In this document: in pieces, positions 4,001 through 60,434 of the stretch
Position numbering within the stretch: position 1 is the first letter of the stretch
Layout: each line of letters opens with the position of its first letter
Origin: Isoetes taiwanensis
Lineage: Eukaryota; Streptophyta; Lycopodiopsida; Isoetales; Isoetaceae
DNA: 64,000 nucleotides
Direction: 5' to 3'
Assembly: GCA_021234155.1 (NCBI GenBank)
Contig: JAJEKV010000225.1
Location: forward strand, 310,001 to 374,000
Notes under the pieces: generated by a model
Database searches by the model: none
Told to the model about the DNA's origin: nothing
The model's input: the letters and a program-made list of their open reading frames with translations, nothing else
Translations under genes and position numbers: made by a program

Positions 4001-4361
4001 GCCACCTAGGCTCCAACATGCCAAGGTGGCTCAAACATGCCACCTAGGCTTCAACATGCCAAGGTGGCTCCAACATGCCACCTAGACTCAATCATGCCAA
4101 GGTGGCTCAAACATGCCACCTAGGCCACCTAGGCTTAGACATGTCAAGGTGGCTCAAACATGCCACGTGGGTTCCAACATTCCACCTAGTCTCTCCAACA
4201 TGCCAAGGTGGCTCAAACATGCCACCTAGATTCCAACATGCCACCTAAGCTCTAATATGCCAGGTGGCTCGGGACATGCCATATGGGCTCCAACATGCCA
4301 CCTAGGCTCCAACATGCCAAGGTGTCTCAAACATGCCAAGGTGGCTCGAACATGCCAAGGT
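1050..4361 (+). repeat. 19-bp minisatellite array, forward orientation, copy 1
   Basis: More than 150 head-to-tail 19-bp units. Main types are CTCCAACATGCCACCTAGG, CTCAAACATGCCAAGGTGG and CTCCAACATGCCACGTGGG, with occasional deletions and 8-bp slips such as CCACCTAGGCCACCTAGG. Since 19 is one more than a multiple of three, three units make a 19-codon cycle that reads like TCHLGSNMPPRLQHAKVAQ. This explains the many long open frames here, which I do not treat as genes. Position and relation to CACTA-like ends suggest a subterminal repeat array. Confidence 0.9.
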
Positions 4362-26930: not shown

Positions 26931-27870
26931 ACTTGGCATGCCATGTCACCACTTGGGGTGCCTAGGTGGCATGCTTGAGACTAGGTGGCATGCCCGAGCC
27001 ACCTTGGCATGTTGGAGCTGCATGGCATGTTGGGACCACCTTGGCATGTGGAGCCCCGTGGCATTATGGAGTCCCATTGGCATGTTTGAGCCACCTTGGC
27101 ATGTTGGAGCCTAGGTGGCATGTTTGAGCCCACCTTGGCATGTTTGAGCCACGGCATGTTTGAGCACGGGTGGCATGTTGGAGCCTAGATGGCATGTTTG
27201 AGCCACCTAGGAATGTTGGAGCCTAGGTGGCATGTTGGAGCCGGATGTGGCATATTTGAGCCACCTTGGCAAGTTGGACATAGGGTGGTATGTTGGGCCC
27301 AGCTTGGCATGTTTTGAGCCGCGTTGGAGCCTAGGTGGCATGTTTGAGCCATTTTGTCATATTTGCGACCCTAGGTGGCATGTTTGAGCCACCTTGGCAT
27401 GTTTGAGCCTAGGTGGCATGTTGGAGCCTAGGTGGCATGTTTGAGCCCACCTTGGCATGTTTGAGCCACATGGCATGTTTGAGCCTAGGTGGCATGTTGG
27501 GAGCCTAGGTGGCATGTTTGAGCCACATTGGAATGTTTGAGCCTAGGTGGCATGTTGGAGCCACCTTGGCATGTTGGAGCCTAAGTGAGCCTGCATGGCA
27601 TGTTTGAGCCTATGTGGCATGTTTGAGCCACCTAGGAATGTTGGAGCCTAGGTGGCATGTTGGAGCCCACGTGGCATTTTTGAGCCACCTTGGCAAGTTG
27701 GAGCATAGGTGGCATGTTGGAGCCTGCGTGGCATGTTTGAGCACGTTGGAGCCTAGGTGGCATGTTTGAGCCATTTTGTCATGTTGGAGCCTAGGTGGCA
27801 TGTTGGAGCCACCTTGGCATGTTTGAGCCTAGGTGGCATGTTAGAGCCACCTTGGCATGTTGGTGCCCAC
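26931..27870 (-). repeat. 19-bp minisatellite, reverse orientation
   Basis: The same unit as at 1050-4361, reverse-complemented: GGCATGTTGGAGCCTAGGT and GGCATGTTTGAGCCACCTT. About 45 units. It lies near the right end of the CACTA element, pointing opposite to the arrays that follow the CACTA-like left ends, as subterminal repeats of one family would. Confidence 0.9.
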
Positions 27871-27959
27871 GTTATGCAAAAATAGGTGTTAAGTAATTGA
27901 AGTAGTTGAAGTAACTTGTGTTACATGGAATACTAGTATAAGAACATGTGATCGTTGTA

Positions 27960-29271: not shown

Positions 29272-31141
29272 GGCATATTCAACAAAACTTAGACTTATTA
29301 GGATATAATAAAAGCAGGGAATAACATTTTAAAATTATATGTCATGTTTAATTCTTCTTGATTCTTATAATTTTTATATGTTCTAATTATATAACTTTAT
29401 CTTTAAATTTAAAATATACTTGTTATAAAGGCATAAAATTGCTTTCTATACTAGTTTTCATGCGAATCTATTTAGAATTAGACATTTCAAGAATATAAAA
29501 TTTTAATTTTTAGTGATTTCTTAACAAATTTAAAATTTGTGAATCAGGATAATTTGAAAATGAAATATGATGGTTTGATAAGTGATTGACTTGAAATTAT
29601 ATGAGAGAATTTCACAATTTACAAACTCTTAGAACATTAAAAATATTTTAAAAGAGTGTTAGTTCAAAATTCTTTAAAAGATAGAAGTTTTGTTTTAAAG
29701 ATAGAAGTTTATATTTTAATAGCAAATATTGAATAGTTTATTATTGATAAAATTAATTAAAAATAAGCTGTACAATTTTTATAATTAAAACTTAAATGCA
29801 ATCATTTGATTCATTTCATCTAAACCTACATTTTAGAAAAATAACATTTTAATCATATAAAGTTTATTTTAGATGAAAAAAATTTCAGAGGCCATCTTCA
29901 GGGGACTGTAGAAGTTTTTATATCACCAAATCTACCAAATCAGTTTTTTGTATCACAATCCCCCTGAAAACTCCTACAGAAAACTCCTACAGTCCTCCTG
30001 AAGATGGCCTCTGAAAATTTTAAGGTTAAAAGTTAAAATATTAAATTAAAAAAAAAAAGGACAAGAAAAATTGCTTACCTAGACTCCAAATCAAGAAGCC
30101 TAATCTCCATTCTACAAAAATCATACATTCTTGTATTTATAAGAATGTCTAAAAAGTAGATGATCGAGGAGATATACCATACAAAGAATATCACTCTTCT
30201 CAAGATCACAACCTTTCTCGCTAGAACTAGCATGCCTGAAAGAAAGACAAATATTATGATATAACTTGGGAAAAAAGAAAAAAATTAATCTTTCATAGTC
30301 TAGACAACATTATAGAAAAAACTTTGATAGAATTTAAGGAACAAGAAGAAGCAAGAGGAGAAGAAAAAATTCAAACTCTAAATTGTTGGAATAACATTGT
30401 TAACATTGTCAGATTATATATATTTTTATTTTTGTTGATTTTTATAAAATTTTCAGTTTATCTTTATATAAGAAGTATAACAGTTATAAAAATTTAAAAC
30501 TACTTTCTAAACTAACTATTACTTTAATCTATTTAAATTTAAAACTTTCATCTAAAATGAACTTTATATGATTAAAATGTTATTTTTTCTAAAATGTAAG
30601 TTTAGATGAAATGAATCAAACGATTGCATTTAAGTTTTAATTATAAAAATTGAACAGCTTATTTTTAATTAATTTTATCAATAATAAACTATTCAATATT
30701 TGCTATTAAAATATAAACTTCTATCTTTAAAACAAAACTTCTATCTTTTAAAGAATTTTGAACTAACACTTTTTTTAAAGTATTTTTAAAGTTCTAAGAG
30801 TTTGTAAATTGTGAAGTTCTCTCATATAGTTTCAAGTCAATCACTTATCAAACTATCATATTTCATTTACAAATTATCCTGATTCACAAATTTTAAATTT
30901 GTTAAGAAATCACTAAAAGTTAAAATTTTATATTCTTGAAATGTCTAATTCTAAATAGATTCGCATGAAAATTAGTATAGAAAGCAATTTTATGCCTTTA
31001 TAACAAGTATATTTTAAATTTAAAGATAAAGTTATATAATTAGAACATATAAAAATTATAAGAATTAAACATGACATATAATTTTAAAATATTATTCCTA
31101 TTTATTATATCTGAATAAGTCCAAGTTTTGTGGAATATGCC
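29272..31141. mobile_element. 1.9-kb foldback element with ~600-bp inverted arms
   Basis: The left arm 29272-29876 is the near-perfect reverse complement of the right arm 30548-31141. Outer ends read GGCATATTCAACAAAAC and its complement. The 670-bp centre holds a nested small hairpin element and about 500 bp of AT-rich sequence with no ORF. No clean target duplication is seen. A second, partial copy occupies 1-533. Non-autonomous; superfamily unknown. Confidence 0.85.
29881..30020. mobile_element. Small hairpin MITE nested in the foldback
   Basis: About 140 bp with inverted ends: left AATTTCAGAGGCCATCTTCA, right its complement (TGAAGATGGCCTCTGAAAATT), extending through ACTGTAGAAGTTTT. It sits at the inner end of the left arm, so the two arms of the large element end at different neighbours. 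Confidence 0.75.
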
Positions 31142-31689
31142 ATTTTGGTCCACGGCTGAAAAAACAAGATAAAAATAGAATACTGATTGTTTTTGAAGAT
31201 TTGAAAAAAAAACCTACATGTAGTTATATGGAGGTGTGGTTTTTCAAGGATATGATGTAGTTTTTCTTAGGGAGCCAGTAGCTTTTTTTTTTTAAGAATG
31301 TTGTGGTTTCTTAAGGAGGTGTAGTCTCTTTTTTAAGATGTGTTGTTTTTTTCAGGGCCCTATGGTTTTTGAAGGGATTTTTTTTTTTTTAAGGTGGTGT
31401 TTTTAAGGTAGTGTTTTTTTGAGGTGTAGTTCTTTATGGCTTTCTAAGATCCATGTATGACCAAGTTATCCGCATGCCATTACTGCCACAAAATGGCGGC
31501 ATAAAAGAGCTGTATGCATGCTTGACACACTCACTAGCATTTGACTTCAGACATGTGTGTGCGTGTGAGCTTGTAGAGCGTGAAACTTGAAGACATCCAT
31601 CACTTGGCAACTTGTAGAAGACACATTGATACGAAGAACCAAAGATTGCCACTGGTTTGGCATCATATAGGCATTTCTTGAAGGATTCA
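31142..31689 (+). mobile_element. T-rich CACTA-like subterminal zone, copy 2
   Basis: Counterpart of 534-1049, with one extra phrase near 31230-31260. The minus-strand frame at 31434-31694 (86 aa) is the copy of that at 797-1099 and stays open despite several amino-acid changes; no domain is recognised. Confidence 0.55.
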
Positions 31690-34526
31690 AACATGCCACA
31701 CCCACTCTAACATGCCATGTGGGCTCCAACATGCCAAGGTGGCTCAAACATGCCACGTGGGCTCCAACATGTCACCTAGGCTCCAACATGCCAAGGTGGC
31801 TCAAACATGCCACGTGGGCTTCAACATGCCACCTAGACTCCAACATGCCACGTGGGTTCCAACACGCCACCTAGGTTCCAACATGCCACCTAGGCTTCAA
31901 CATGCCAAGGTGGCTCAAACATGTCACCTAGGCTCTGACATGCCACCTAGACTCAAATATGCCAAGGTAGCTCAAAGATGCCACGTGGGCTTCAACATGC
32001 CACCTAGGCTCCAACAAGCCAAGGTGGCTCACAACATGCCACCTAGGCTCCAACATGCCAAGGTGGATCAAATGTGACACCTAGGCTGCAACATGCCACC
32101 TAGGCTCCAACATGCCAAGGTGGCTCAAACATGTCAAGTGGCTCAAACATGCCCGTGGGCTCCAACATGCCACCTAGGCTCCAACACACCAATGTGGCTC
32201 AAACATGGCGGCTAGGCTCCAACATGCCACCTAAGCTCAAACATGCCATGTGGGCTCCAATATGCGACCTAGGCTCCAAAACACCAATGTGGCTCAAACA
32301 TGCCAGCTAGGCTCCAACATGCCACCTAAGCTCAAACATGCCATGTCGGCTCCAACATGCCACCTAGGCTCCAACATGCCAAGGTCCCAACATGCCAAGG
32401 TGGCTCAAACATGCCACATAGGCTCCAACATGTCACCTAGGCTCCAACATGCCAAGGTGGCTCAAACATGCCACCTAGGCTCCAATATGCCACCTAGGCT
32501 CAAACATGTCAAGGTGGCTCAAACATGCCAAGTGTGCCCCAACATGCCACCTAGGCTCCATCATGCCAAGGTGGCAGAAACATGCCAAGGTGCTCAAACA
32601 TGCCACCTAGGCTCAAACATGTCAAGATAGCTCAAACATGCCACGTGGTTTCCAATATGCCACCTGGGCTTCCACATGCCAAGGTGGCTCAAACATGCCA
32701 CCTAAGCTCCAACATACCACCTTGGCTCCAACATGCCAAGGTGGCTTCAACCTGCCACCTGGGCTCCAACATGCCAAGGTGGCTCAAACATGCCACGTAA
32801 CATGTCACCTTGGCTGCAACATGCCAAGCTCAAACATGCCACCTAGGCTCAAAGATGCCACCTAGTCTCAAACACACGTGGCGGCTCCAACATGCCACCT
32901 AGTCTCAAACATGCCACCTAGGCTCCAACATGCCAAGGTGGCTCAAACATGCCAAGGTGCTCAAACATGCCACCTAGGCTCCAACATGCCACCTAAGCTC
33001 AAACATGCCACGATGGCTCAAACATGCCACATGGTTTCCAACATGCCACCTAGGCTGCAACGTGCCAAGGTGGCTCAAACATGCCACCTAGGCTCCAACA
33101 TACCCCCAAGGCTCCAACATGCCAAGGTGGCTCAAACATGCCACCTAGGCTCCAACATACCACCGAGGCTCCAACATGCCAAGGTGGCAGATGTTAAGGT
33201 GGCTCAAACATGCCACCTAGGCCACCTAGGCTCAAACATGCCAAGGTGGCTCAAACATGCCACCTAGGCTCAAACATGCCAAGGTGGCTCAAACATGCCA
33301 CTTAGGCTCAAACATGCCAAGGTGGCTCAAACATGCCACCTAGGCTCCAACATGCCAACTAGGTTTAAACACGCCAAGGTGGCTCAAACATGCCACGCGA
33401 GCTCCAAGGCCACCTAGGCTCCAACATGCCAAGTTGGCTCAAACATGGCACGTGGGCTCAAACATGTCACCTAGGCTCTAAGATGCCAAAGTGGCTCAAA
33501 CATGCCACCTAGGATCCAATATGCCAAGGTGGCTCAAACATGCCATCTAGGCTCAAACATGCCAAGGTTGCTCAAACATGCCACATGTGCTCAAACATGC
33601 CAAGGTGGCTCAAACATGCCAAGGTGCTCAAACATGCCACCTAGGCTCCCAACATGCCACCTAAGCTCAAACATGCCACGATTGATCAAGCATGCCACGT
33701 GGTTTCCAACATGCCACCTAGGCTCCAACATGCCAAGGTGGCTCAAACATGCCACCTAGGCTCCAACATACCACCGAGGCTCCAACATGCCAAGGTGCCT
33801 CCAACCCCGCCACCTGGGCTCAAAAGATGCCAAGGTGGCTCAAACATGCCACCTAGGCTCAAACATGCCACCTAGGCTCAAACATGCCACCTAGGCTCAA
33901 ATATGCCAAGGTGGCTCAAACATACCACCTAGGCTCCAACATACTCAAACATGCCACCTAGGCCACCTAGGCTCCAACATGCCAACTAGGCTTAAACATG
34001 CCAAGGTGGCTCAAACATGCCACGCGAGCTCCAAGGCCACCTAGGCGCCAACATGCCAAGGTGGCTCAAACATGGCACGTGGGCTCCAACATGTCACCTA
34101 GGCTCCACGATGCCAAGGTGGCTCAAACATGCCACCTAGGCTCAAACATGCCACCTAGGCTCAAACATGCCAAGGTGGCTCAAACATGCCACATGTGCTC
34201 CAACATGCCACCTAGGCTCCAACATGCCAAGGTGGCTCAAACATGGCACGGGTCTGGACATGTCACCTAGGCTCCAAGATGCCAAGGTGGCTCAAATATG
34301 CCACCTAGGCTCCAATATGCCACCTGGGCTCAAACATGCTAAGGTGCGCAAACATGCCACCTAGGCTCCAACATGCCACCTAAGCTCAAACATGCCAAGG
34401 TGGCTCAAACATGCCACCTAGGCTCCAACATACCACCGAGGCTTCAACATGCCAAGGTGGCTCTAACATGCCAAGGTGGCTCAAACATGCTACCTAGGCC
34501 ACCTAGGCTTAAACATGCCAAGGTGG
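31690..34526 (+). repeat. 19-bp minisatellite array, forward orientation, copy 2
   Basis: Same unit types and order as copy 1, with local unit gains and losses. Long open frames within it are products of the 19-bp period. Confidence 0.9.
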
Positions 34527-44986: not shown

Positions 44987-44999
44987 AAAAACATCCGTC
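44987..44999. repeat. 13-bp target-site duplication, left (LINE)
   Basis: AAAAACATCCGTC, repeated at 53880-53892 directly after the poly(A). Confidence 0.9.
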
Positions 45000-45354
45000 G
45001 AGGGCATGGGGAAAAGTAGCCAAGGAGGCGCTGCTGTGCGCGCCGTTTTGGCGACCGAATGTCATGGCTGCCAGGCTCGATCCTGAGTGAGCTCTACTAA
45101 GCTCCTCTACATCGGCCTATCTAGAGCAGAGCAGGGAAGATGGAGTTGAGCAATATTGCTCCTCCTGGCTTCCTCCTTTTCTAAGCAACTCTAAAGGCAG
45201 AGGGCAGAGCTAGTGTGCTAACTCTGCCATATCTGATATTAAGCGAGCTCTCATGAGCCCCTCTACATCGCTATACACAGCACACTAAGAAGGAGTTGAG
45301 CTATGCTGCTCCTCCTGACCTATTATCCATCTAAACAGGGAAACAGCAGCCGGA
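45000..45354 (+). promoter_or_regulatory. LINE 5' UTR with repeated monomer
   Basis: Two related ~155-bp blocks: gagctctactaagctcctctacatcg ... ggagttgagcaatattgctcctcctgg (from about 45088) and gagctctcatgagcccctctacatcg ... ggagttgagctatgctgctcctcctga (from about 45244). A 26-codon upstream ORF occupies 45006-45086. Repeated 5' UTR monomers act as promoters in some L1 families; that role here is inference. Confidence 0.55.
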
Positions 45355-45672
45355 ATGAGCAGTCCACATCTATCTAGGCACAGAAGCTATTCTAGTGCTA
45401 GGTTCTTCACCATAATCACTTATGGAGATCTCTATATGTGTGGCTGGTTGGAGGGCGAATTCAGCCAACTCTGGGAAGCCCTTGTTTTGGATAGAATCTT
45501 TCCTGGTCATCTCTTTCAAGCAGAAGCCTGGCTCACTCCACAAATCCCAGTCCAACTAATCGACTATTGGCTGGGCGACTATATGGGAGACAGGAATATC
45601 TCGGCTGCTGGCATTTTCCATGTTTACTGCCACTGGGCCCCCGGCAAAATCATTGTTAAAATCTATACTTAG
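45355..45672 (+). CDS. LINE small ORF A (GWLxG family)
   Basis: 105 aa starting at ATG 45355. A Ser/His/Arg-rich start is followed by a folded-looking segment, YMCGWLEGEFSQLWEAL, then WLTPQIPVQLIDYWLGDYMG and a closing AAGIFHVYCHWAPG. The GWLxG(x)4-5(L/I)WxxL core and the closing FxVxxxW recur in ORFs B and C, so the three are paralogues that arose by tandem duplication. Rich in Trp and aromatics, no Cys/His finger, no signal peptide. Not a family I recognise. As the first long ORF after the 5' UTR it would be translated by scanning. Confidence 0.6.
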   Translation: MSSPHLSRHRSYSSARFFTIITYGDLYMCGWLEGEFSQLWEALVLDRIFPGHLFQAEAWLTPQIPVQLIDYWLGDYMGDRNISAAGIFHVYCHWAPGKIIVKIYT

Positions 45673-45972
45673 CTGCTAGTTTTGCTTGGATGCTGATAGA
45701 TCCAAAGCTCTTGCAGTCAACTCTTGACCAGTCTGTCCTTCCTCTTGGGACCTCTTGCATGAAAGGTCAATTTGTCCCTTTGCTGCCGGGTTAGCTAGCT
45801 GCCTCATGAAACCTTTAGCCTCTGCAACTTTCATAAATTCATATGTGTTTGCTGAATCCACATTATGCTTTACAATCATTTCTCTGGCTCGGCTTGGGCT
45901 CTATATAAGCCCCTTTGCTGAATCTGCAGCACACAACTCCAGCCACAAGTGCCTGCATCTTCCGATGTCTCA
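45673..45972 (+). promoter_or_regulatory. Spacer between ORFs A and B with a TATA-like box
   Basis: No plus-strand ORF. Contains GGGCTCTATATAAGCCCC (TATATAAG at 45902-45909), a TATA-like box set in a short palindrome, about 65 bp before the ATG of ORF B. It could be an internal promoter for B onward. It is the only large gap between ORFs in the element. Confidence 0.4.
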
Positions 45973-46356
45973 ATGGGACTACCCCTGCCGCTCTTCTTAA
46001 ACTCCCCACCCTCTCCAGCAAACTATTCTCCATCCCCCTCTGATATTGAGATCTCAAGATATTTCGTCACCATCGAGGGTTCCCAACAGCTAGCCTGTGG
46101 ATGGTTGGAAGGTCCTGCTGCAGAGCTGTGGACATACTTAGTTGACGAGAGGCTGGTCCCAGAGATTTATTTTGTTGGTGAGAGTGGCACGCCTGCTGTT
46201 AATCCAGAGGAAACACTGAGGCTTTGGAGGCTCGAGTTTCTTGGAATTGATCGTCCGGCTTTTGCCACCTTCTACGTTCACAGTGCCTGGATGATAGATT
46301 CAGTCAAGCTAGATTTGCACAAGGTGCCTCTCCCATTTGAGATCATATCTGATTGA
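45973..46356 (+). CDS. LINE small ORF B (GWLxG family)
   Basis: 127 aa from ATG 45973; an upstream GTG in frame is not needed. Pro/Ser-rich N terminus (about residues 1-25), then ISRYFVTIEGSQQLACGWLE, GPAAELWTYLVDERLVPEIY, and a C-terminal part RLWRLEFLGIDRPAFATFYV with HSAWMIDSVKLD. It shares the GWLxG core and FxVxxxW closing motif with ORFs A and C. Ends TGA 46354-46356, 29 bp before ORF C. Function unknown. The conserved fold across three divergent copies suggests selection at the protein level in the family. Confidence 0.6.
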   Translation: MGLPLPLFLNSPPSPANYSPSPSDIEISRYFVTIEGSQQLACGWLEGPAAELWTYLVDERLVPEIYFVGESGTPAVNPEETLRLWRLEFLGIDRPAFATFYVHSAWMIDSVKLDLHKVPLPFEIISD

Positions 46357-46385
46357 AACTTCTAGAATGGTTTCTCGAGATCTCA

Positions 46386-46736
46386 ATGGATCAAAGCCCC
46401 TCTGTTACATCGCTGCACTCATCTTCCTCTGATCCTAGTTCGGTTCATCTGCACTATTCCCCGCCATACATAGTCCGCACAGCCATTCTTGCTAATCATA
46501 ACTATATCTGGTGGGGCTGGCTCAGAGGGGATCTGGAGGATATCTGGACATCCTTGATTGATAGGCAAATCCTTTTTCTAGATCAATTCTATTGTGTTGG
46601 TGGACTGCAACTTTTGGGAGATCTTCACAATACAAGGAGGGTGGTTAGACTGCTTGCCCGGGGATCACTCACAGCCTTACCTCTTCAAGCTTTTCTTGTT
46701 AAGCGTACATGGTTGAATGATACCCTTTTGGGTTGA
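46386..46736 (+). CDS. LINE small ORF C (GWLxG family)
   Basis: 116 aa from ATG 46386. Ser-rich start, then PYIVRTAILANHNYIWWGWL, RGDLEDIWTSLIDRQILFLD, and LPLQAFLVKRTWLNDTLLG at the end, matching the layout of ORFs A and B. It is the most diverged of the three. The stop (46734-46736) is only 11 bp before the ATG of the gag-like ORF, so translation of the latter could depend on reinitiation. Confidence 0.6.
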   Translation: MDQSPSVTSLHSSSSDPSSVHLHYSPPYIVRTAILANHNYIWWGWLRGDLEDIWTSLIDRQILFLDQFYCVGGLQLLGDLHNTRRVVRLLARGSLTALPLQAFLVKRTWLNDTLLG

Positions 46737-46747
46737 GCTATACTAAG

Positions 46748-48535
46748 ATGGAGATCAATCAAACTAGCTATGCAGAGGCGGCTGGTCTTCTCACACAGAT
46801 AGACTGCCCGCAGATGAACTGCCCGGAGGATACTCAATCAAGAGGGCTTATCTCTGTCCATACTCAAGAAGTGGCTAACAGGATTCGGTTTCTACAGATC
46901 CACTGTCTGATTGGTAAGCTGCTTCGTGGATCCCCCAAGATGGGTGAGATCCGAAGGACCCTGGGAATTATCTGTAGATCCAGAACCCCGCCAAAGGTGC
47001 AAGCTTTAGGGAACTCCTACTTCGCAATCATTGTCAATCTACCTAAGGAAGCTGAGATTCTGTTTAGAAGGGGGATCATATCCACCATGCATGGGCAATT
47101 CTTCGTGCAGAAATGGCGGCCAGGCTTCAACCCCATGCTCCCAGACGCTCTTTTCTACCCAGTTTGGGTCTCTCTAGAGGGGCTGCAGTTTGAACTCTGG
47201 ACAGAGAGAACTCTCAAAACTTTGACGTCCTCTATTGGAGAGTATGTCTGTTTTGACAACAGAAGTGAAGATGTGCCCAGACTATGTGTGGCAATGGATC
47301 TACTCAAACCCATCCCCAAAGCTATTGAGTTTGAGGGTTTCTACAAAGAAAGCGTTGTGTTCCCTTTGACATCTCTGAGTCTGCCCCCAATCTGCGCTGG
47401 ATGTGGTCTTAGAGTCCACCCAAATGCTATGTGCCCATCAATAAAGGAATGCGACAAAGGAAAGGGGCCCATGGCTGAATGCATCTCTGATGTACCTGAT
47501 CAAATCTCAGCCCAACGGCTGTTCTTTAAAGGGGAATGTTCTACTGCCACTCCTGACAACAATGACTCTGTTAAACCTCAGAAGGAACCAGAGGTATCGG
47601 GCCTTGTTGACCTTGTCGACCTTCAAAAGATGGATCCATCACATCCTCCTGAGCAAGCGGACCTGCTGGAGCTATCCAATGAGCACGACAGGGCTGCATG
47701 TAATACCCCTGTTGCAGATTTGTATGTATCTGCCCCCTCTATTACAGATTTGCATGTCTTTGCTCCCCCTGTTACAGATCTGCAGCCCTCTGCCCCCTCC
47801 ACGTCTCCTGATCTCAATGCTGGCTCTATCTCTGTTGCTTCTCCCACATTGGCACATATAAAGAAGACACCTCATAAAGTCAAATGGGCAGATATGGTGG
47901 AAGACTCGGTGGTCGTCTATGCTGATCACCCGGCCATTCAGGCCTCAGCCACCACTAATGAAGGGCAGGTAACATCGGCCCCTGGCCAAGATGATTTTCA
48001 GCCCGCAAATCTGCCGGACTGTCATGAACTAGAGAAGCCCCATAAGCCCACAAACCCAATCTCGGGTCAGGGAAGAAGAGCAATGGAGATAGAGGGAGAT
48101 CTGATTGCTGGGGAGAATGGATCTGATATGCCTGGGAAGCAGCCAGGATTTAACAGCCTATCTGGCCAGGACATACTAGCAACCAATGAACAAGACTTGT
48201 ATGCAGCCAGAAATCTCATTGAAGACATCAGGAAGAATCCCCTCTATGCTGAGATAGAATTTGCTAACCAGTTCATTAGGGAGAAAATCCCAGGTGTTGC
48301 TGCTGATCCAATTGCCACAACAGAGGCAGCCTATGTTACAATGGATGCTTTGCTCGTTGACTCAATCGGTAATGGTACCCCTCGGGCTACACAGGAGAAG
48401 ATCAAAGGAATTGAGTTACAGGAGACCCCCCCCTCTGCCTTAGTGGAAAAAAAGAAACGTAGAAGGGGTAGACGTAGTACAAGGAGAACGCAATTGGAAG
48501 ACCTCGTCATGGACGAGGCTGGTAGCCCTGGATGA
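46748..48535 (+). CDS. LINE gag-like ORF (DUF4283-type, CCHC knuckle)
   Basis: 595 aa from ATG 46748. The N-terminal ~200 residues have the look of the plant L1 ORF1/DUF4283 domain: LIGKLLRGSPKMGEIRRTLG, YFAIIVNLPKEAEILFRRG, FFVQKWRPGFNP, and PVWVSLEGLQFELWT. Around residue 220 is a perfect CX2CX4HX4C zinc knuckle, CAGCGLRVHPNAMC. A Pro/Ser/Asp-rich linker carries three short repeats (DLYVSAPS, DLHVFAPP, DLQPSAPS). The C terminus is very basic (KKKRRRGRRSTRR), a likely nuclear signal or RNA-binding tail. Predicted to coat LINE RNA. The frame is intact. Confidence 0.85.
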   Translation: MEINQTSYAEAAGLLTQIDCPQMNCPEDTQSRGLISVHTQEVANRIRFLQIHCLIGKLLRGSPKMGEIRRTLGIICRSRTPPKVQALGNSYFAIIVNLPKEAEILFRRGIISTMHGQFFVQKWRPGFNPMLPDALFYPVWVSLEGLQFELWTERTLKTLTSSIGEYVCFDNRSEDVPRLCVAMDLLKPIPKAIEFEGFYKESVVFPLTSLSLPPICAGCGLRVHPNAMCPSIKECDKGKGPMAECISDVPDQISAQRLFFKGECSTATPDNNDSVKPQKEPEVSGLVDLVDLQKMDPSHPPEQADLLELSNEHDRAACNTPVADLYVSAPSITDLHVFAPPVTDLQPSAPSTSPDLNAGSISVASPTLAHIKKTPHKVKWADMVEDSVVVYADHPAIQASATTNEGQVTSAPGQDDFQPANLPDCHELEKPHKPTNPISGQGRRAMEIEGDLIAGENGSDMPGKQPGFNSLSGQDILATNEQDLYAARNLIEDIRKNPLYAEIEFANQFIREKIPGVAADPIATTEAAYVTMDALLVDSIGNGTPRATQEKIKGIELQETPPSALVEKKKRRRGRRSTRRTQLEDLVMDEAGSPG

Positions 48536-48557
48536 AGGATGATAAGTAATTTTTGTG

Positions 48558-48710
48558 ATGGATCGTGCTACATACATATCGGATAAGATAAACTTTTTGT
48601 ATGGCGTGGGATGCAGTAGAGTATGCCTAAAGCAAACGTTGATGGTCGTGGAAGCTAAAGGGGGTAAGATCTCACCTTATGCTCCCAATCTCCGATTGCT
48701 ATTTGCATGA
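48558..48710 (+). CDS. LINE 50-codon ORF overlapping the next start
   Basis: ATG 48558, stop TGA 48708-48710. It begins MDRATYISDKINFLYGVG. No domain is recognised. It lies 22 bp after the gag-like ORF, and its stop overlaps the ATG of the next ORF as ATGA (48707-48710), the arrangement known to allow termination-reinitiation in some LINEs. It may be a real small protein or an uncoupled leader. Confidence 0.4.
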   Translation: MDRATYISDKINFLYGVGCSRVCLKQTLMVVEAKGGKISPYAPNLRLLFA

Positions 48711-49605
48711 TCCTATATCCCCCTACCCCCTGGTTTATGAGCTATTTTCAACTTGCTTGTATAATGATAAGTATGTTTCCCTCTCGTAAGTGGTTGTCTT
48801 TTTATTGTTGCTTCATGAAAAGACTAATGTTAGTAAGGAAGCCATATAATTTTGGGATTGATCATATTGAAAATGGGGTTGGGCAACAACAAGCCATGCC
48901 CAATAGCATCGATGGAGGTCATTGCAACCTCAAGCTGTGGAATAGCGGGGTGCAGGATGCTATTGAATTTGTCAATAGCAACCTCGTGACTCGGGAATAT
49001 ATAGGTCTAGACATCGATATGTCACCTTGTGAGGGTCAACTTAAGAAAACTTTAGGGGGCTCCCCTATCATTTTCACCAAAAGGAGGGAATGTCACACAA
49101 AACGACAAAGAGGAGCATCACTTATCCATATTTTATACGGATACTATAGGATGGGTTATGGTTTTGGATGGGCCGTCGATCTATGGTTACCACAATTATG
49201 CAATAGGTACCCAACCTATAGGTACCCAACCTGCCCGTGTAAAGATGAAAGACAAGCATTCATATCTAAGGCGAGCTGGTCTATTGGAAAGGGTTTGCAT
49301 TCATATCTAAGGCGAGCTGGTCTATTGGAAAGGGTTTGAATCATTATTGGCAATCATATGCAATGCCTCTTGGGAAGAAGCCGAGTTCAGAGTACACCAA
49401 TGTACCAATGTTGGGTGGTATGAATTGGCAATCATATACCATGTCCCCTGGGGAGAGGCCGCGTCTAGCATCAATGATAGTGGAATATGAGACAAATGAG
49501 CATGGGGAGTTAGGAACCCGAGGAGAGATGGGCTCAGGAATCTATGCTATGGGACAAACACCCTCTATGGTGGTAGGTGCTATTTTGAGCCCTTTCTTAT
49601 ACTAA
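48707..49605 (+). pseudogene. LINE unknown ORF, split by a 41-bp tandem duplication
   Basis: The first part, 48707-49339 (210 aa), starts at the ATG overlapping the preceding stop. It has a hydrophobic start (WFMSYFQLACIMISMF), then GIDHIENGVGQQQ and a repeat RYPTYRYPTC. A perfect 41-bp tandem duplication (49257-49297 and 49298-49338) shifts the frame. The second part, to 49605, has its own repeat, WQSYAMPLGKKP and WQSYTMSPGERP. Removing one duplicate copy puts both parts in the same frame, so an ancestral ORF of about 285 codons is likely. It ends 4 bp before the endonuclease-RT start. No domain is recognised. Confidence 0.55.
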
Positions 49606-49609
49606 ATAT

Positions 49610-52600
49610 ATGAAGATAGTTTCCTGGAATTTACGTGGTATTAAGGGCACTCTCAAGAGGGCTAGGGTCCTTGCTGCTATTAGATCTATGAAAGCTGACA
49701 TCATCCTTCTGCAAGAGCATAGACTCCCAACTTTTGAAGCGACATGCCTTGGTAAATGGGTTAGTGATAGCTATGATTCAGTTACATGCCCTGCGCATGG
49801 TACTAAAGGGGGAACAGGCATCTTGTGGAAGGGTCAGTCACCCATAGGCTCGTACTGTAGTAGGGGTGGTAGGTGGCAAGCAGTATTATTTGATACCTTA
49901 GAAGTTAAGTGGGGAATTATTAATATCTATGCATCCAATAAGCCCGCTGAGAGAGCTGCCCTATGGCTAGAAATAGAGACATGGATTCTACACCAGCATC
50001 ATGAGATTAAGAACTGGATATTGGGAGGTGATCTTAATATGACGGATGTATGGGATCAAAAGATAGGATTGCATAGGAACTTGACAGGAGAGGAGCAAAG
50101 GACTTGGCAATCTCTCATTAACAATGTTGGATTTACCCCATCCAATGTATCCTTCTCCTGGTCAAATAAACAGAAGGGACAAGACCGAGTATATTGTTTG
50201 CTGGATAGATTTTACATGGCTAATCCTTCTGCTCCCTTTATGGACAGAAGTTATGTTACTGGTGACTTGGCATTCTCTCATTCTGACCATGTCCCGCAAC
50301 ACTTGACTATTGAGGGAATTGCTGTTATGGGGGAGAGAAAGAATATCCCCTTTAAATTTAATACTGCATGGCTGGGTAAAGAGGCCTTCTGTAAACCATT
50401 TAAGGAATACCTTCTCTCCATTGAAGTCAGTGAGTCACCTAGTATGAAAACTTGGGCTAAGTTGCTCCGTATGATGAAAGACTGGGCGAAAGAGTGGGGG
50501 AAGAACAGAGCTTTGGAGTTTAAAAAGAATAAGAATGAGGTCTACAATATGCTTAAAATAGTAAGGCAAGGTCTTCTGGTGGATCCATACTGCGAGGCAA
50601 GTCAAAAGCTGGAGGAAGAACTGGAGGCCAAAGCAAAGGCTATCGAGGAGGATGAAGCTAGAGGGGCAGCAGTCCGTTCTAAAACTAAATGGTATGCGGA
50701 GCTGGACCATGAAAACTCTAAGTGCTTCTTTCGCTTAGCAGGTGCGAGATTGGGTGAAAATAGCATCACATCTATGCTTGACGACAAAGGAGTAATTCTG
50801 CAGGATCAGAAGGAGATCTCTGCTTATGTCAGAAACAGTTTCCACGATATGTTCAAGGAGGACACTATGCCCCCTCTAAACGGCTTTTGCGGTGTCCCAG
50901 ATGGATAAATTAGACTGGAGTAGTGGTATCACTGCAGAGGATAATTTGCGCCTCATGGGTGATCCCACCGAGGAGGAAATATATAAAACCTTATGCTCCC
51001 TTGCCCATGGAAAGTCTCCGGGTCCAGATGGGTTCCCGCCTGAGTTCTTTGTGGAATTCTGGGAAGTGCTAGGTCCATTCTTTATAAGAGCAGTTAAGGG
51101 AGCATGGTCCACAAGGTGTCTTCGTTCCTCCCTAACATCGGGATTCATTACATTAGTTCCTAAGGTTGATAGACCCCAGCACCTAGGGGAGTGGAGGCCC
51201 ATAGCTCTAACAAATGTATTATATAAGGTTATTGCTAAAACTATAGCCAATAGATTGAAGCCTATCCTAAATAGGCTCATTGGCAATGAGCAATCGACAT
51301 TCTTGCCGGGGAAGATCCATACTTGATAACTATTTGGCTGTAGAGAAGGTCTCCATTGGGCCAAAAGATCACAACAAAAATGTATTCTACTCAAGCTGGA
51401 CTTTCGGAAAGCATATGACACTTTGAGGTGGTCGGGACTAAGGGAAGTTATGGCTAGGCTGGGGTTCGATCCTCAGTTTATCAAGGCGGCTTTTGGTGCG
51501 AATAAGTTCGCAGCAGCTTGATTACGGTTAATGGGCAACCATCAGGACTCTTCCACCTAAGAAAGGGAATCAGACAAGGTTGCCCATTAGCACCCTACCT
51601 ATTTCTACTAATGGCTAGTCTCTTAAGCAAAATTATCGAGTAAAGTTGTGGGCCGGTTCTCTTAATGGGCTTGACTTCCTCTAAGCGAGGAGAGATTGAC
51701 AATAATGCAATATGCGGACGATACCTTTGTCTTCCTAAGGTATGATGATATGAGTTTTCTTTGCCTTTAAAGATTGTCTCCTGCTCTTTGCTGTTTTTGC
51801 GAGGATCGGGCTCAATGCACGTAAATGCGCAATTATGTGGCCATTCGAGGAGGAGGTAGATGCCAGGGTTAATTCTTTAGGTTTCCAGATCATTAAAGCA
51901 GGGGAAGCTACCAAGCTGCTTGGGTTACCACTTGTGGTATCAGATAATCTTAAAGGTCTATGGACTCCGATTCTTGATAAACTGCGGAAAAAGGTAGGAC
52001 TATGGTCTTCTAAAGGCCTTTCCATTCTTTGGAAGAATAACGATTGGCTAATCTTTGTACTAGCCTCCTCCCATGTATACTACTCCTCAATTATACTAGC
52101 TCAAAAAGGGGTATATAATCAAATTCAAGCTATTATCAGGAAGTTTATCTGGGGTGGCATGCACTTGGTTGCCTGGTCAGAGATATGCAGGGATAGGAAA
52201 AATGGAGGCCTAGGTTGCAAAGATATCTTGACCACGAGGCCCAAATTCTATCAGCCAAATATGTCGGAGAGCAATCGGGGAGGTGCCCCCGCTCGGACGA
52301 GTTTTGTTCGATACTGGCTTGGCCTATGTAAACTGAAAGGGAAGCCCTCTCTCCCCAGAGACGAAGCAGGTGCCATGTTCTTTAGATATAGGATAGCTCC
52401 TGGGACCTCTCCAGTGATGCGGAAGATTCTACAGGCCTGGTGTGAAATACAGCAACTTTTCTCCCCTATGGAGCCTGTACTAGATTCAGGAAACCTTAGC
52501 ATCTTCTGGAATACTCATATCTGGAGAAGGGGTGATCTCCCCCTTGCTCTATCTCATCCCCGTATCTTCACCAAATGGAAGGATGCAGGCATCACTAAAT

Positions 52601-53448
52601 TGCACCACCTATGGAGGAACGATAGGTGGACATCATGGTCCAGGTTCAAAACTCTAATCAGAAATCCAGGTGAGGCTGATAGAAAGGTCTTTAAGGAAGT
52701 CATAAAGAATGTACATGTCCTTACTGGTAAATGCGGCCCAGGAGAAAAATGGTTATGTCATGGTTCAGAAAAGTTTGAAGTTGGTAAGATATACCGCCTG
52801 CTTGTTCAACCAAGCCCTCTTAAAGCTACTAATACTCTTCGGCTGAGCGAAAGAGAAGTGATCAAGCTCCTAGGTGATTCCTGGACTACCCTTTGCTCGA
52901 GAAGGATTCAATATTTCAGATGGTTAGCCCTACAAGGTGGCCTTAATACGCGTGTCAGGCTAATCGAAAGAGGCACTGCTGTTCCATTGGAGTGCCCACT
53001 TGGCCATTCTACGCCCGAGAGGATCTGACACATCTCTTCTTACATCCCACGTATTATATGCTTCTGGCGTTGGGTTGCCCCCATTATTGGGCTAGAAGAT
53101 GCCAGTCTAGATTGGCCCCAGATAATCACCTCCAGCGAAAACGACAAAATATCTGCAACGCTAGTCAATATTGCCTTGTGGGTAGTATGGAAGCATAGAT
53201 GTGAGGTTGCTCTTGGAGGGAAAGCTATCTCCTTAGCAAAACTAAAGAACTGGTTCAACTACGAAGTTGCATTAATGGCCCTTGCACACCACAAGAAAAT
53301 GGGGAGTGCATATCACAAGGATTTGGATAGGATTGGAAGACTCGAAGGGTTCTATACATTCTTCAGGTGCAACTGGGATGGAAAAAAGGAAGATGAACAT
53401 GCTCTAACCGGGGTACTGGAAGCAGGTGAGGAGAACATTGGCTCGTAA
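49610..53448 (+). pseudogene. LINE endonuclease-reverse transcriptase ORF, frameshifted
   Basis: APE-type endonuclease at the N terminus (49610 to about 50310): SWNLRG (N7), QEHR (E36), YASN, GGDLN (D141, N143), LLDRF and SHSDH (D226, H227), all catalytic residues present. The frame is intact to 50908, then shifts. RT motifs follow in order: GKSPGPDGFPPEFF (51010), GFITLVPKVDRP and WRPIALTN, KLDFRKAYDTLRW (51394), GIRQGCPLAPYLF (about 51573) and MQYADD (catalytic YADD 51711-51722). Next come the connection (FIWGG, GGLGCKD) and the zinc-binding tail near 53000 (LECP...THLFLHP) with WVVWKHRCEVAL. Breaks occur near 50895, 51326, 51515, 51640, 51765, 52995 and 53180. Supplies nicking and reverse transcription in intact relatives. 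Confidence 0.9.
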
Positions 53449-53884
53449 TGGTGATGGAGTTTATATGGTCTCCTCCTCTCTGAGATGATCATGGCATGGG
53501 GACCTGGAATGCTGAGGTCATACTCCTATAGTACCATCAATAAGGCAAAGGTGACTTCATATAGTTGCACAATCCCCATAGTACTGTGCTGATGTGGAAG
53601 AGGTAGAGGAAGCCAACCAGGTGGTACTTCCATAGTACTCATCATCACGGGAAGACGTGTGATCCTGCGACCCCTGAGGTACTTGTGCCTTATTAACAGG
53701 GAAGAAGTTGAGGTAACCTCACCAAAGTACAAGAACCCCTACTGTGATTCACCCTCAAGACTGGAGTGATTTGACCCTGTGCGGTTTTTTCTTCAAGCTG
53801 ATCCATGGGGATCATGTACTATATTTATAAATTAATAGAGTTTCAACCTTACACTCAAAAAAAAAAAAAAAAAAAAAAAAAAAA
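53449..53884 (+). other. LINE 3' UTR and poly(A)
   Basis: Contains a direct repeat of the phrase atagtac(cat/tgt) and gtact(c/t)ccatagtact (53520-53640), then AATTAATAGAG and a 28-base poly(A) at 53857-53884, of which the last five overlap the target duplication. Confidence 0.8.
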
Positions 53885-53892
53885 CATCCGTC
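53880..53892. repeat. 13-bp target-site duplication, right (LINE)
   Basis: AAAAACATCCGTC, the partner of 44987-44999. Confidence 0.9.
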
Positions 53893-54954: not shown

Positions 54955-56616
54955 TAACGGACCTAGCAACCCTAGCACCAACATTGAGATGTAAGTAACG
55001 TTGCCATTATATAAGAGTGCATTTTCAAGGTAAAATAAATGATTATGTGCTAGGAATACATGCATGCAATGTGTCCATGCATGCGATTGTGTGCATGCAT
55101 GCATGCAAGGGCATTGCTAGGTTATATAAGTGCAACAATATTATTCTTGATTTCTTGGGGAAGGAGTTTTCCATGGGGAAAGAAGTCTTTTATGTGATGG
55201 TGAAGCATCGGAAGGAGATAGATTGCGGATGGATTGTTGAAGGAGCGAGTTGTGTGCGAGAGATCGGGGGGCGTTCTTTGGGAGCCTGGAGGAAGCAAAG
55301 CGGGATTCAGGTGGGGATCAAGCCTTACACACAGGGTTTTCTAGTGTTTGTATAGTTTGTGTTGATTTAATAATGATTGCTTTGAACATAGTATAAACTT
55401 GGAGTTAAATCATATGAGCATGGTCATGAATAGGCATGCATGGTTAATGGATAGCGAGCATATTAACCAATTCAATAAACTAGTTAGCAGGGTTATGGAA
55501 GCCACCGTCATTAAGGTTATAAGTAGTAATTTGAAGGAAGTTGATCTAGTTAAAAGTAATAAGATATTAGTGAAGATTGTATTTTGCTTAAGCAGGGCAT
55601 TGCATGTTGCATGGTAGAGATAGTAATGTTTATATGAGGATTTCCTTTGTTGCATGAGGTGTAAATTATGGAATTTCTAAGGTAAATTTGATATGGAAAT
55701 GTGCCTAGTTGATATTGGGTGGAATTCATAGTATTGTGATCTATGTGTAGTATAATTCTTTGATATAGACCTCGGGGCGGAGTCTAGGTGCGATGGTCTA
55801 GACTCGCGGTTATTACCTGAGTGCTATGTAATGGTATTATTTGAACATCGGGCGTTGGTGCCGTATGGTACAAGCGTCATGCTGATTAAGTGGTCCTCAA
55901 TCTTTGGCCTTAGCGTGGATGGGTGTGTACACTGCGTGGTTACCCGCCTCTATGTCCTTGGCCCGATCGGCCCGAGTTGACCTTGCTCGGACCAGGAGGA
56001 ATATTGGTTGCAATGTTGATGCTATGATTGCTTGGTTATTGTATATGTGTTTTTAATGTTGGAATTAACTTGCAATGGTCATGCTTGGTGTAATTATGCA
56101 TTGTGATTATGCTTGTTGGACTAAGTAACCTAGGTTGCAGGCGCAGGCTACGGTAAGGCTAAGTTATTGTTCTAAGTTAAGGCTTTGTAGTGATTGTTTT
56201 AAGATATATCCTAGATCCCCGATCCCCACTTAGTCCAGGTGTGACTAACCCCGTGGTTGATGGTGTAGCAGAGGTGTGAGATGCTCTAGGGAAAGTAGCC
56301 AAGCTTGGAGAGAGTAGAAGTGTGTGGATTGCTATTCAATAAACTTGATTATTATTACTATTATTATTATTATATATGGGCTTGAAGTTACAATTATTAA
56401 GCTCATTCATAGTGTCTTGAGGGATATTCTTTGAGTAATGGGCAAGTACATGTTTGGAACCTTAGAATATGTACAAAGATTAGATTCTTTACCTAAGTGT
56501 TATTGTTGCAGATGCATGAGTTAATTTCTTAAGTTTTTAAGCTTAAGTAGATCAATGGTCGAGATTGATGGGATCTCCGGTTACCATAAAGGTTAAGCGG
56601 CGGGCCAAAATCGTCA
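54955..56616 (+). repeat. 5' LTR
   Basis: Begins TAACGGACCTAGCAACC (not a canonical TG) and ends CGTCA. TATATAAG lies at 55008-55015, only about 54 bp from the start, so the U3 region is short if this is the promoter. Contains the alternating phrase gcatgcatgcatgcaa. A 73-codon open frame (55399-55617) recurs in the other LTR only because the LTR is duplicated. Confidence 0.85.
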
Positions 56617-58773: not shown

Positions 58774-60434
58774 TAACGGACCTAGCAACCTAGCACCAAC
58801 ATTGAGATGTAAGTAACGTTGCCATTATATAAGAGTGCATTTTCAAGGTAAAATAAATGATTATGTGCTAGGAATACATGCATGCAATGTGTCCATGCAT
58901 GCAGTGTGTGCATGCATGCATGCAAGGGCATTGCTAGGTTATATAAGTGCAACAATATTATTCTTGATTTCTTGGGGGGAAGGAGTTTTCCATGGGGAAA
59001 GAAGTCTTTTATGTGATGGTGAAGCATTCGGAAGGAGATAGATTGCAGATGGATTGTTGAAGGAGCGAGTTGTGTCACGGAGATGCGGGGGCGTTCTTTG
59101 GGGAGCCTGAGAGGAAGCAAAGCGGGATTCGGTGGGGATCAAGCCTTACACCTGGGGTTTTCTAGTGTTTGTATAGCTGTGTTGATTTAATAATGATTGC
59201 TTTGAACATAGTATAAACTTGGAGTTAAATCATATGAGCATGGTCATGAATAGGCATGCATGGTTAATGGATAGCGAGCATATTAACCAATTCAATAAAC
59301 TAGTTAGCAGGGTTATGGAAGCCACCGTCATTAAGGTTATAAGTAGTAATTTGAAGGAAGTTGATCTAGTTAAAAGTAATAAGATATTAGTGAAGGTTGT
59401 ATTTTGCTTAAGCACCGGGCATTGCATGTTGCATGGTAGAGATAGTAATGTTTATATGAGGATTTCCTTTGTTGCATGAGGTGTAAATTATGGAATTTCT
59501 AAGGTAAATTTGATATGGAAATGTGCCTAGTTGATATTGGGTGGAATTCATAGTATTGTGATCTATGTGTAGTATAATTCTTTGATATAGACCTCTGGGG
59601 CCGGAGTCTAGGTGCGATGGTCTAGACTCGCGGTTATTGCACAGTGCTATGTAATGGTATTATTTGAACATCGGGCGTTGGTACCGTATGGTACAACGTC
59701 ATGCTGATTAAGTGGTCCTCCAATCTTTGGGCCTTGGCGTGGATGGGTGTGTACACGTGGTTACCCCGCCTCTATGTCACTGGCCTGATCAGCCGAGTTG
59801 ACCTTGCTCAGACCCAGAGGAATATTGGTTGCAATGTTGATGCTATGATTGCTTGGTTATTGTATATGTGTTTTTAATGTTGGAATTAAGTTGCAATGGT
59901 CATGCTTGGTGTAATTATGCATTGTGATTATGCTTGTTGGACTAAGTAACCTAGGTTGCGAGGCGAGGGCTACGGTAAGGCTAAGTTATTGTTCTAAGTT
60001 AAGGCTTTGTGGTGATTGTTTTAAGATATATCCTAGATCCCCGATCCCCACTTAGTCCAGGTGTGACTAACCCCGTGGTTGATGGTGTGCTGCGAGAGGT
60101 GTGAGATGCTCGGGAAAGTAGCCAAGCCTGAGGGCGAGTAGAAGTGTGTGGATTGCTATTCAATAAACTTGATTATTATTACTATTATTATTATTATATA
60201 TGGGCTTGAAGTTACAATTATTAAGCTCATTCATAGTGTGCAGGGATATTGCTGAGTAATGGGCAAGTACATGTTTGGAACCTTAGAATATGTACAAAGA
60301 TTAGATTCTTTACCTAAGTGTTATTGTTGCAGATGCATGAGTTAATTTCTTAAGTTTTTAAGCTTAAGTAGATCCAATGGTCGAGATTGATGGGATCTCC
60401 AGTTACCATAAAGGTTAACTGGCCAGGCCCGTCA
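58774..60434 (+). repeat. 3' LTR
   Basis: Collinear copy of 54955-56616 with TATATAAG at 58826-58833. Differences are scattered single-base indels and a few substitutions. Confidence 0.85.

What the first reader, a model, noticed from the sequence alone, without database searches (positions are those of the whole stretch)
45000..53884. A LINE built like an operon: up to seven ORFs in one 8.9-kb element
The element is complete (13-bp target duplication, poly(A)). Before endonuclease-RT it has A, B, C, a gag-like ORF, a 50-codon ORF and an unknown ORF. From C onward the gaps are 11, 22, -4 (ATGA) and 4 nt. Known plant L1 elements normally have two ORFs. A single transcript with this packing would need repeated termination-reinitiation, subgenomic RNAs or internal promoters. 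The layout is read directly; the expression model is inference.
Basis: partly seen in the sequence, partly recalled or inferred. Interest (0 to 1): 0.85.

Follow-up and report, generated by a model that had tools for sequence, protein, structure and literature searches.

The report
Multi-ORF LINE with three paralogous mini-proteins
A plant-type jumping element carries, ahead of its two usual genes, three related small protein genes that selection has preserved across many sister elements in the same genome, packed end to end like a bacterial operon, which is unlike the textbook two-gene element of this kind.

Summary
The element (45000-53884; 13-bp target duplication, poly(A)) is real; ORF2 reads as broken in this copy. 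ORFs A, B and C are genuine: each open in 6 of 7 other copies checked, dN/dS 0.16-0.24 (EN 0.21), 0.02-0.11 in sister families. They are paralogues of one protein family unknown to Pfam. 112 of 136 gag hits outside the subfamily have such an ORF upstream on the same strand; families carry one, two or three, in conserved order, with B-C and C-gag gaps of -4 to 50 nt.

The 50-codon and "unknown" ORFs differ: no codon-position signature, and the unknown ORF occurs genome-wide only in this subfamily. It is cut short here by a 41-nt duplication. Yet a long stop-free frame reaching the EN start occurs in 23 of 30 elements examined, in mostly unrelated sequence, with stops avoided and tandem duplications nearly all multiples of 3. 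I read it as a spacer kept open for translation, not for its peptide.

Best mechanism: one polycistronic RNA translated by termination-reinitiation (inferred). Observation partly confirmed, interpretation partly supported; a new variant of plant L1-type LINEs.

The parts
44987..44999 (.). 5' target-site duplication AAAAACATCCGTC
   Evidence: sequence
45000..45354 (+). 5' UTR with six ATGs and a partly repeated segment (45068-45145 / 45216-45316)
45355..45672 (+). ORF A, 105 aa, small-protein family, A type
   Evidence: dN/dS 0.20-0.23; paralogue of B, E 2e-11
45973..46356 (+). ORF B, 127 aa, small-protein family, B type; AF2 core strand-strand-helix-strand-helix-strand-strand
   Evidence: dN/dS 0.18-0.24; model mean pLDDT 80
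46386..46736 (+). ORF C, 116 aa here (119 aa in 6 other copies), small-protein family, C type
   Evidence: dN/dS 0.16-0.17; paralogue of B, E 4e-5; length difference near its 3' end against the other copies aligned there
46748..48535 (+). ORF1/gag, 595 aa, DUF4283 domain at residues 63-181
   Evidence: Pfam PF14111 E 2e-17; N part dN/dS 0.25-0.27
48558..48710 (+). 50-codon ORF
   Evidence: intact in 7 of 11 other copies that cover it; no codon signature
48707..49339 (+). first part of the gag-EN spacer frame X (the 'unknown ORF'), cut short by a 41-nt duplication
   Evidence: no codon signature; stops avoided; found only in this subfamily; AF2 mean pLDDT 28.5 for the L016 version
49258..49339 (.). 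41-nt tandem duplication that shifts frame X; shared with the 5'-truncated copy L064
   Evidence: absent from 11 of 11 fetched copies covering it; present in L064
49363..49605 (+). rest of the spacer frame (80 codons), ending 4 nt before the EN ATG
49610..50908 (+). ORF2 endonuclease part
   Evidence: Pfam PF03372 E 3e-12; dN/dS 0.16-0.21
50901..53448 (+). ORF2 RT and C-terminal part, reading in several frames with stops in this copy
   Evidence: Pfam RVT_1 E 4e-7 and a zf-RVT match below its cut-off; pieces listed
53449..53884 (+). 3' UTR and poly(A)
53880..53892 (.). 3' target-site duplication (its leading A's merge with the poly(A))

Best explanation
This is an old copy, ORF2 reading as broken, of a plant L1-type LINE from a large clade that carries one to three extra small genes (A, B, C) between the 5' UTR and ORF1. 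A, B and C arose by duplication of one ancestral ORF before the sister families split, and each has been kept as a functional protein (shown). All ORFs lie in one sense array with stop and next start close together from B onward (shown). The full-length RNA is most likely translated as a polycistron by coupled termination and reinitiation (inferred). The stretch between ORF1 and EN is a spacer whose reading frame is kept open so that ribosomes arrive at the EN start codon. The fact of translation is selected, not the peptide (stop avoidance and in-frame duplications shown; the reason inferred). The small proteins are probably structured accessory factors of the retrotransposition particle or of reinitiation (function inferred).
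For: A/B/C selection: pooled dN/dS 0.23/0.18/0.17 against EN 0.16, frame-specific among forward frames; disjoint pairs 0.20/0.24/0.16; sister families 0.02-0.11 in the 9 of 12 pairs that gave a value, 3 saturated; 0-0.07 in 6 pairs of the single-ORF family. Open in other copies: A, B and C each in 6 of 7 copies examined, near full length. Paralogy: A-B E 2e-11, B-C 4e-5; C clade 100/100, A plus single-ORF type 99/98, B 74/58. Clade-wide: 112 of 136 gag hits outside the subfamily have an A/B/C hit upstream on the same strand within 4 kb; none downstream or antisense among the rows entered. Packing: B-C gaps in 13 elements and C-gag gaps in 12 are -4 to 50 nt, including an ATGA and a 0-nt junction. 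Spacer: a stop-free run up to EN exceeds dinucleotide shuffles (P <= 0.0075) in 23 of 30 elements, against 0 of 13 upstream of the first small ORF (best 0.023). In-frame stops were 0 in nine of ten pair tests and 1 in the tenth, with 3.0-5.5 expected. Duplication periods are multiples of 3 in 10 of 11 sequence groups.
Against: No RNA, ribosome or protein data exist here. No calicivirus-type TGGGA motif is enriched upstream of the small-ORF and gag starts (1 of 19 junctions); it precedes EN in 3 of 7. Exact spacings vary and the A-B gap is 248-340 nt (7 elements). Of the 23 long spacer frames, 11 end within 5 nt of the EN ATG, 3 end 16-28 nt before it, 6 overrun it by 26-35 nt and 3 run in frame into EN. 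An end at +4 (ATGA) is automatic in that frame, because the EN ATG is followed by A. Seven of 30 elements lack a long spacer frame. The frame-shifting 41-nt duplication is shared by the window and L064, a separate insertion, so a source with a split spacer frame was still copied; in the window the two parts lie 23 nt apart. The pairs were chosen because both frames were open. The ORF1 tail also lacks a codon-position signature in substitutions, and the composition test fails to single out A, B, C and the gag N part as well, so neither proves that the spacer peptide is unimportant.
Confidence: 0.57

Rival explanations
1. The ORFs are expressed from several RNAs (internal promoters, or splicing that brings each ORF near a cap) and the packing only reflects compactness.
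For: A, B and C are conserved proteins however they are made; the A-B gap of 248-340 nt could hold a promoter or intron.
Against: B-C, C-gag and X-EN junctions of -4 to 12 nt in several families leave no room for promoters, and retrotransposition needs the full-length RNA (general knowledge).
Confidence: 0.2
2. The spacer frame X encodes a real, very fast-evolving protein (for example a host-defence antagonist).
For: Open in 23 of 30 elements, duplications mostly multiples of 3, stops avoided; of 17 X tested L044, L045 and L050 show codon-position information at z 2.7-4.5 (L062, a gag-type tail, 6.8), and in this test the real genes A, B, C and gag N part reach only 0.1-1.5, so a low z does not exclude a protein.
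Against: Substitutions are flat over codon positions and dN/dS in frame is the lowest of the three frames in only 1 of 6 pairs; no similarity between most families; Pfam none for 6 tested; AF2 mean pLDDT 28.5 against 80 for ORF B (7 against 31 rows).
Confidence: 0.3
3. The unknown and 50-codon ORFs are chance open frames in a non-coding inter-ORF region; only A, B, C, gag and ORF2 are genes.
For: No codon signature, no homologues in sister families for the unknown ORF; a duplication that splits the frame was propagated.
Against: Stop-free runs up to 513 codons before EN against a shuffled mean of about 40; negative control upstream of the first small ORF; stop avoidance within the subfamily. 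For the 50-codon ORF alone this rival is not excluded.
Confidence: 0.17
4. A, B and C are relics of the gag DUF4283 domain duplicated upstream.
For: A short shared W-LEG-LW motif.
Against: Profile comparison E 0.7, probability 0.1.
Confidence: 0.08

Closest known systems
Plant L1-clade LINEs, e.g. Celine of poplar (PMC11288735, passages read)
   Same: ORF1 with DUF4283, ORF2 with endonuclease and RT, poly(A), target duplications; Celine's two ORFs overlap and reinitiation or an IRES is suggested for it
   Different: Celine has two ORFs in 6.1 kb; here 8.9 kb with three extra paralogous small ORFs and a long gag-EN spacer frame
SART1 of silkworm (termination-reinitiation at UAAUG; PMC5972666, passages read)
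   Same: A non-LTR element whose second ORF is reached by stop-start coupling
   Different: One coupled junction with a direct stop-start overlap; here several junctions in a row
Caulimovirus pregenomic RNA (PMC5902531, passages read)
   Same: Consecutive ORFs joined by short gaps or fused stop-start codons and translated from one RNA in plants, with a viral transactivator in CaMV
   Different: A virus and not a LINE; no homology to its proteins was tested; any transactivator role for A, B or C is conjecture
Primate L1 ORF0 (recalled, no call)
   Same: A small extra ORF in the 5' region of a LINE
   Different: ORF0 is antisense and young (recalled); A, B and C are sense, paralogous and under strong selection

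Membership tests
Plant L1-type LINE | ORF1 with DUF4283 | tested here: met
   PF14111 E 2e-17
Plant L1-type LINE | AP-type endonuclease followed by RT in ORF2 | tested here: met
   PF03372 E 3e-12 and PF00078 E 4e-7 on adjacent pieces
Plant L1-type LINE | poly(A) end and target-site duplication | tested here: met
Plant L1-type LINE | two ORFs only | tested here: not met
   three further conserved ORFs under selection. I take this as a variant feature, not a defining one; the review PMC9033089 (passages) states two ORFs for L1
Plant L1-type LINE | RT falls in the L1 clade on a tree | not tested
   no reference RT set of eukaryotes was at hand
Termination-reinitiation polycistron (works like SART1 or caulimovirus) | stop and next start within a few nt or overlapping | tested here: inconclusive
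   15 of 25 B-C and C-gag gaps are 14 nt or less, 10 of 25 are 24-50 nt; X-EN within 5 nt in 11 of 23 long spacer frames; A-B 248-340 nt, not met
Termination-reinitiation polycistron (works like SART1 or caulimovirus) | downstream ORF output depends on translation of the upstream ORF | not testable with these tools
   needs reporters
Termination-reinitiation polycistron (works like SART1 or caulimovirus) | TURBS-type TGGGA motif upstream (calicivirus subtype) | tested here: not met
   1 of 19 small-ORF/gag junctions; 3 of 7 EN starts
Any described protein family for A/B/C | sequence or fold match | tested here: not met
   Pfam: best E 0.2 (31 members); PDB sequences none up to E 1; Foldseek PDB best E 0.98, viral models best E 0.03; the VIA-align look never ran

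The most novel reading that the evidence does not exclude
A eukaryotic mobile element with a true multi-gene translational operon. Up to seven ORFs on one RNA are read by serial termination-reinitiation. They include an ORF1-ORF2 spacer that is selected only to be an open, translatable path ending at the ORF2 start, whatever its sequence, and a family of small paralogous proteins that may act in trans to license reinitiation.
Probability: 0.33. Interest if true: 0.92.

Novelty: new variant of a known kind. Interest (0 to 1): 0.75.

Why it matters
LINEs are usually taken as one- or two-ORF elements. A clade with one to three additional, strongly conserved small genes means that plant L1 biology has unstudied components. 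An element with this many packed cistrons would be a natural test case for how plant ribosomes reinitiate after long ORFs. The spacer frame, if it is selected to be open and not for its peptide, would be a clean example of translation itself being the selected trait. It also warns that long open frames without codon signature can be functional without encoding a functional protein.

Tried and rejected
Homology of A/B/C to the gag domain: a shared motif only, profile E 0.7. PPR-like capture in the L030/L045 spacer, seen by eye: Pfam gave nothing for L045, so dropped. Calicivirus TURBS motif: not enriched. Reading the unknown ORF as simply non-coding from flat dN/dS: withdrawn after the stop-avoidance, shuffle and duplication results. 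Codon-position information as proof that X is random: withdrawn, since A, B, C and the gag N part also score low in that test. Fold search of ORF B: no significant match. Species identity: not found; only Arabidopsis-type telomere repeats (402 matches, overlapping ones counted, against 0 for the control) and domains that I recall as plant-type, so I say plant-type. Relatives in other genomes: the other collections offered hold prokaryotes, phages, plasmids, viral contigs and metagenomes; I did not search them for this element, so occurrence elsewhere is untested.

Full report
OBSERVATION. The finding covers an L1-type LINE at 45000-53884. The 13-bp AAAAACATCCGTC is at 44987 and at 53880 behind the poly(A). 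Pfam finds DUF4283 in the gag-like ORF, an endonuclease domain, RVT_1 and a zf-RVT match below its cut-off, and nothing credible for A, B, C or the small ORFs. ORF2 reads in pieces in three frames. An 80-codon ORF ends there. A 41-nt duplication is the reason.

COPIES. The window's own genome (1.66 Gb) is held. A gag query had 4776 candidates, of which the best 150 were scored and matched. I fetched 12 stretches; by BLASTN all 12 hold copies of this subfamily, six of them full length or nearly. They are not all independent. L018 and L020 share their 3' flank. L011 and L019 share a 5' truncation point. It shares the 41-nt duplication. It is identical to the window over long stretches but has 200-base blocks with 10-22 mismatches and gaps, as local assembly error or patchwork conversion would give, so not every break in this copy need be real.

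A, B AND C ARE GENES. In the 7 copies examined for ORFs upstream of gag, A, B and C are each open at or near full length in 6 (A is cut in L016 and slightly short in L020, B is lacking in L016, C in L020). Pooled NG86 dN/dS is A 0.23, B 0.18, C 0.17, gag N part 0.25, EN 0.16. The two shifted forward frames give 0.75-1.59 for A, B and C; the reverse frame whose codons share third positions gives 0.30-0.32, as is usual for coding DNA read backwards; the A-B gap and the UTRs give 0.44-1.17 in forward frames. Rows that did not align to A, B or C (5, 3 and 3 of 13) were left out. With disjoint pairs the values are A 0.20, B 0.24, C 0.16, gag N 0.27, EN 0.21 (3, 4, 4, 5 and 4 pairs). In sister families 12 pairs gave 9 values of 0.02-0.11; 3 were saturated.

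ONE PROTEIN FAMILY. BLASTP links A-B (2e-11) and B-C (4e-5). A 31-row alignment has two invariant residues, G and W, in a GWLEG..LW motif. A tree of 29 rows gives C 100/100, A with the single-ORF type 99/98, B 74/58; the program warns that long branches meet at C and A. The single-ORF family is nested in A, so it most likely lost B and C (inference; recombination is not excluded). Pfam, PDB sequences and two Foldseek libraries show no significant relative. AlphaFold2 gives ORF B a confident core of about 90 residues, 68 of them at pLDDT 90 or more.

CLADE-WIDE. Of 12 sister stretches fetched upstream of gag, three carry A-B-C, six B-C, one a truncated single ORF, and two (L024, L031) no ORF of 50 aa or more that matched; in L024, however, the genome searches find B- and C-like stretches. 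Some of these 12 are close kin (L021/L022/L028, L026/L027), and C of L023 has a divergent end. A high-copy family sampled in four loci has one A-type ORF of 91 aa at its 5' end, then gag; in L033 and L035 the gag frame overlaps EN by ATGA. Co-location: of 149 gag rows used (one of 150 was the second piece of a gag already counted), 138 lie beyond the 11 best. 94 have an A- or B-query hit upstream on the same strand within 4 kb and none downstream or antisense. For A only 58 of 150 rows were entered; those left out are mostly, not only, the 92-codon-frame family, so the counts are lower bounds. C-query hits add 19, giving 113 of 138; only the rows on contigs of the remaining 44 were entered. 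Two of the 138 are L019 and L020, subfamily copies (one with, one without a hit), so outside the subfamily it is 112 of 136.

JUNCTIONS. B-C gaps (13 elements) are -4, 12 or 28-38 nt; C-gag gaps (12) are 0, 1, 3, 11, 24 or 50; A-B gaps (7) are 248-340. In the 6 subfamily copies with an intact C the C-gag gap is 1 nt; an in-frame ATG lies 30 nt further upstream in 8 of 11 copies that have the gag ATG, so gag may start inside C. Twenty-four ATGs precede gag in the window, so simple leaky scanning is unlikely.

THE 50-CODON ORF. It is intact in 7 of 11 other copies that cover it (L018 and L020 are one insertion). Its dN/dS is 0.69-0.78 with no position signature. I cannot say that it is a gene.

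THE SPACER FRAME. Genome-wide, the unknown ORF has 26 match rows: at the window, at the 12 fetched copies (for L012 further along its contig) and at L064. Between gag and EN the subfamily keeps one stop-free frame: 297, 302 and 302 codons in L009, L011 and L016, and 110-237 in nine others, the window included. Its substitutions lack codon-position bias (53/63/52). Yet in ten pair tests in-frame stops were 0 (once 1) against 3.0-5.5 expected, P 0.0015-0.037, not independent. Sister families mostly have unrelated sequence there: 22 spacer proteins fall into 16 groups by BLASTP at 1e-3 (L062 looks like a gag-type tail and L044 has a weak match to one gag). In 30 elements (20 newly sampled from EN hits chosen mostly for long ORF2 frames, 7 sister families, 3 copies) the run reaching the EN start was 24-513 codons against shuffled means of 33-47. 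P was <= 0.0075 in 23 of 30, and in 16 of the 20 new ones including L062. The failures are L013, L025, L029, L048, L049, L054 and L060. Of the 23, 11 end within 5 nt of the EN ATG, 3 end 16-28 nt before, 6 overrun by 26-35 nt, 3 are in frame with EN. Upstream of the first small ORF none of 13 reached that level (best 0.023). In six related pairs, in-frame stop differences were 0 in five and 4 in one; the other frames had 1-15. In-frame dN/dS was 0.56-1.10, the lowest of the three frames in 1 of 6. Gap lengths were mostly multiples of 3 in two pairs (L030/L045, L046/L047) and mixed in the rest (pairs chosen because both were open). Tandem duplications, found in 14 of 33 sequences, have periods that are multiples of 3 in 10 of 11 sequence groups (L050 grouped with L029 by eye; some may lie in gag tails; in L029 and L060 the two ends of a repeat differ by an indel). 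The exception is L048; the 41-nt one of the window and L064, which that call did not list, is another. Codon-position information is that of random stop-free sequence (z under 2.1) in 13 of 17 X, but A, B, C and the gag N part (z 0.1-1.5) are not singled out either, only EN (3.7) and gag tails (16-33), so this test is weak. AlphaFold2 mean pLDDT for X is 28.5 on a 7-row alignment. I conclude that the frame tends to be kept open while the peptide is nearly free to change; a fast-evolving protein remains possible.

MECHANISM. Shown: conserved small proteins; sense-only array; close stop-start junctions from B onward; a frame kept open up to EN in most elements examined. Inferred: one RNA, serial termination-reinitiation, and the spacer as a ribosome path. 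Precedents are SART1 and the closely packed caulimovirus RNA (PMC5972666, PMC5902531; passages read). Against: no TURBS-type motif, some frames overrun EN or fuse with it, a split spacer was propagated, and there are no expression data. The role of A, B and C is unknown; my first guess is a structured accessory or reinitiation factor (conjecture).

NOVELTY. Plant L1 elements are described with two ORFs (PMC9033089; Celine, PMC11288735; passages read). Eight searches of the held library (55 and 80 aimed at reinitiation) listed no paper that by title or abstract start describes such small ORFs. Most subscription papers are not held, and the main plant LINE survey (Heitkam 2014) was seen only as a reference. 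Novelty is therefore probable, not proven.

Noticed in passing
window 54971-56553 and 58789-60374: Near-identical direct repeats 3.82 kb apart, probably the LTRs of a short LTR element.
   Followed up: no
window 970-4070, 26957-27950, 31687-34500: Degenerate 19-bp tandem repeat arrays at three places, one in opposite orientation.
   Followed up: no
window 1-1043, 29318-29841, 30622-31680: A sequence of about 1 kb repeated directly 30.6 kb apart at 93-100% identity, with an inverted partial copy.
   Followed up: no
L033-L036 (single-ORF LINE family): Numerous: many of the 92 A-query rows left out have an open frame of 92 codons. It keeps one A-type ORF close to the 5' end; in L033 and L035 gag overlaps EN by ATGA.
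   Followed up: partly
G000:C556:158794-160053 (L060 lies next to it): An EN hit sits in an open frame of 2543 codons, about double the usual ORF2.
   Followed up: no
L018 and L020 (contig C1047, 50 kb apart): Same 3' flank, so one insertion copied by a segmental duplication.
   Followed up: partly
window 48357-53884 against L064: Two copies identical over long stretches with blocks of clustered mismatches and gaps: local assembly error or patchwork conversion.
   Followed up: partly
ORF A and B of sister families, e.g. L025, L021: The N-terminus MG.PLP is shared by A and B types across families; possible targeting or modification signal.
   Followed up: no
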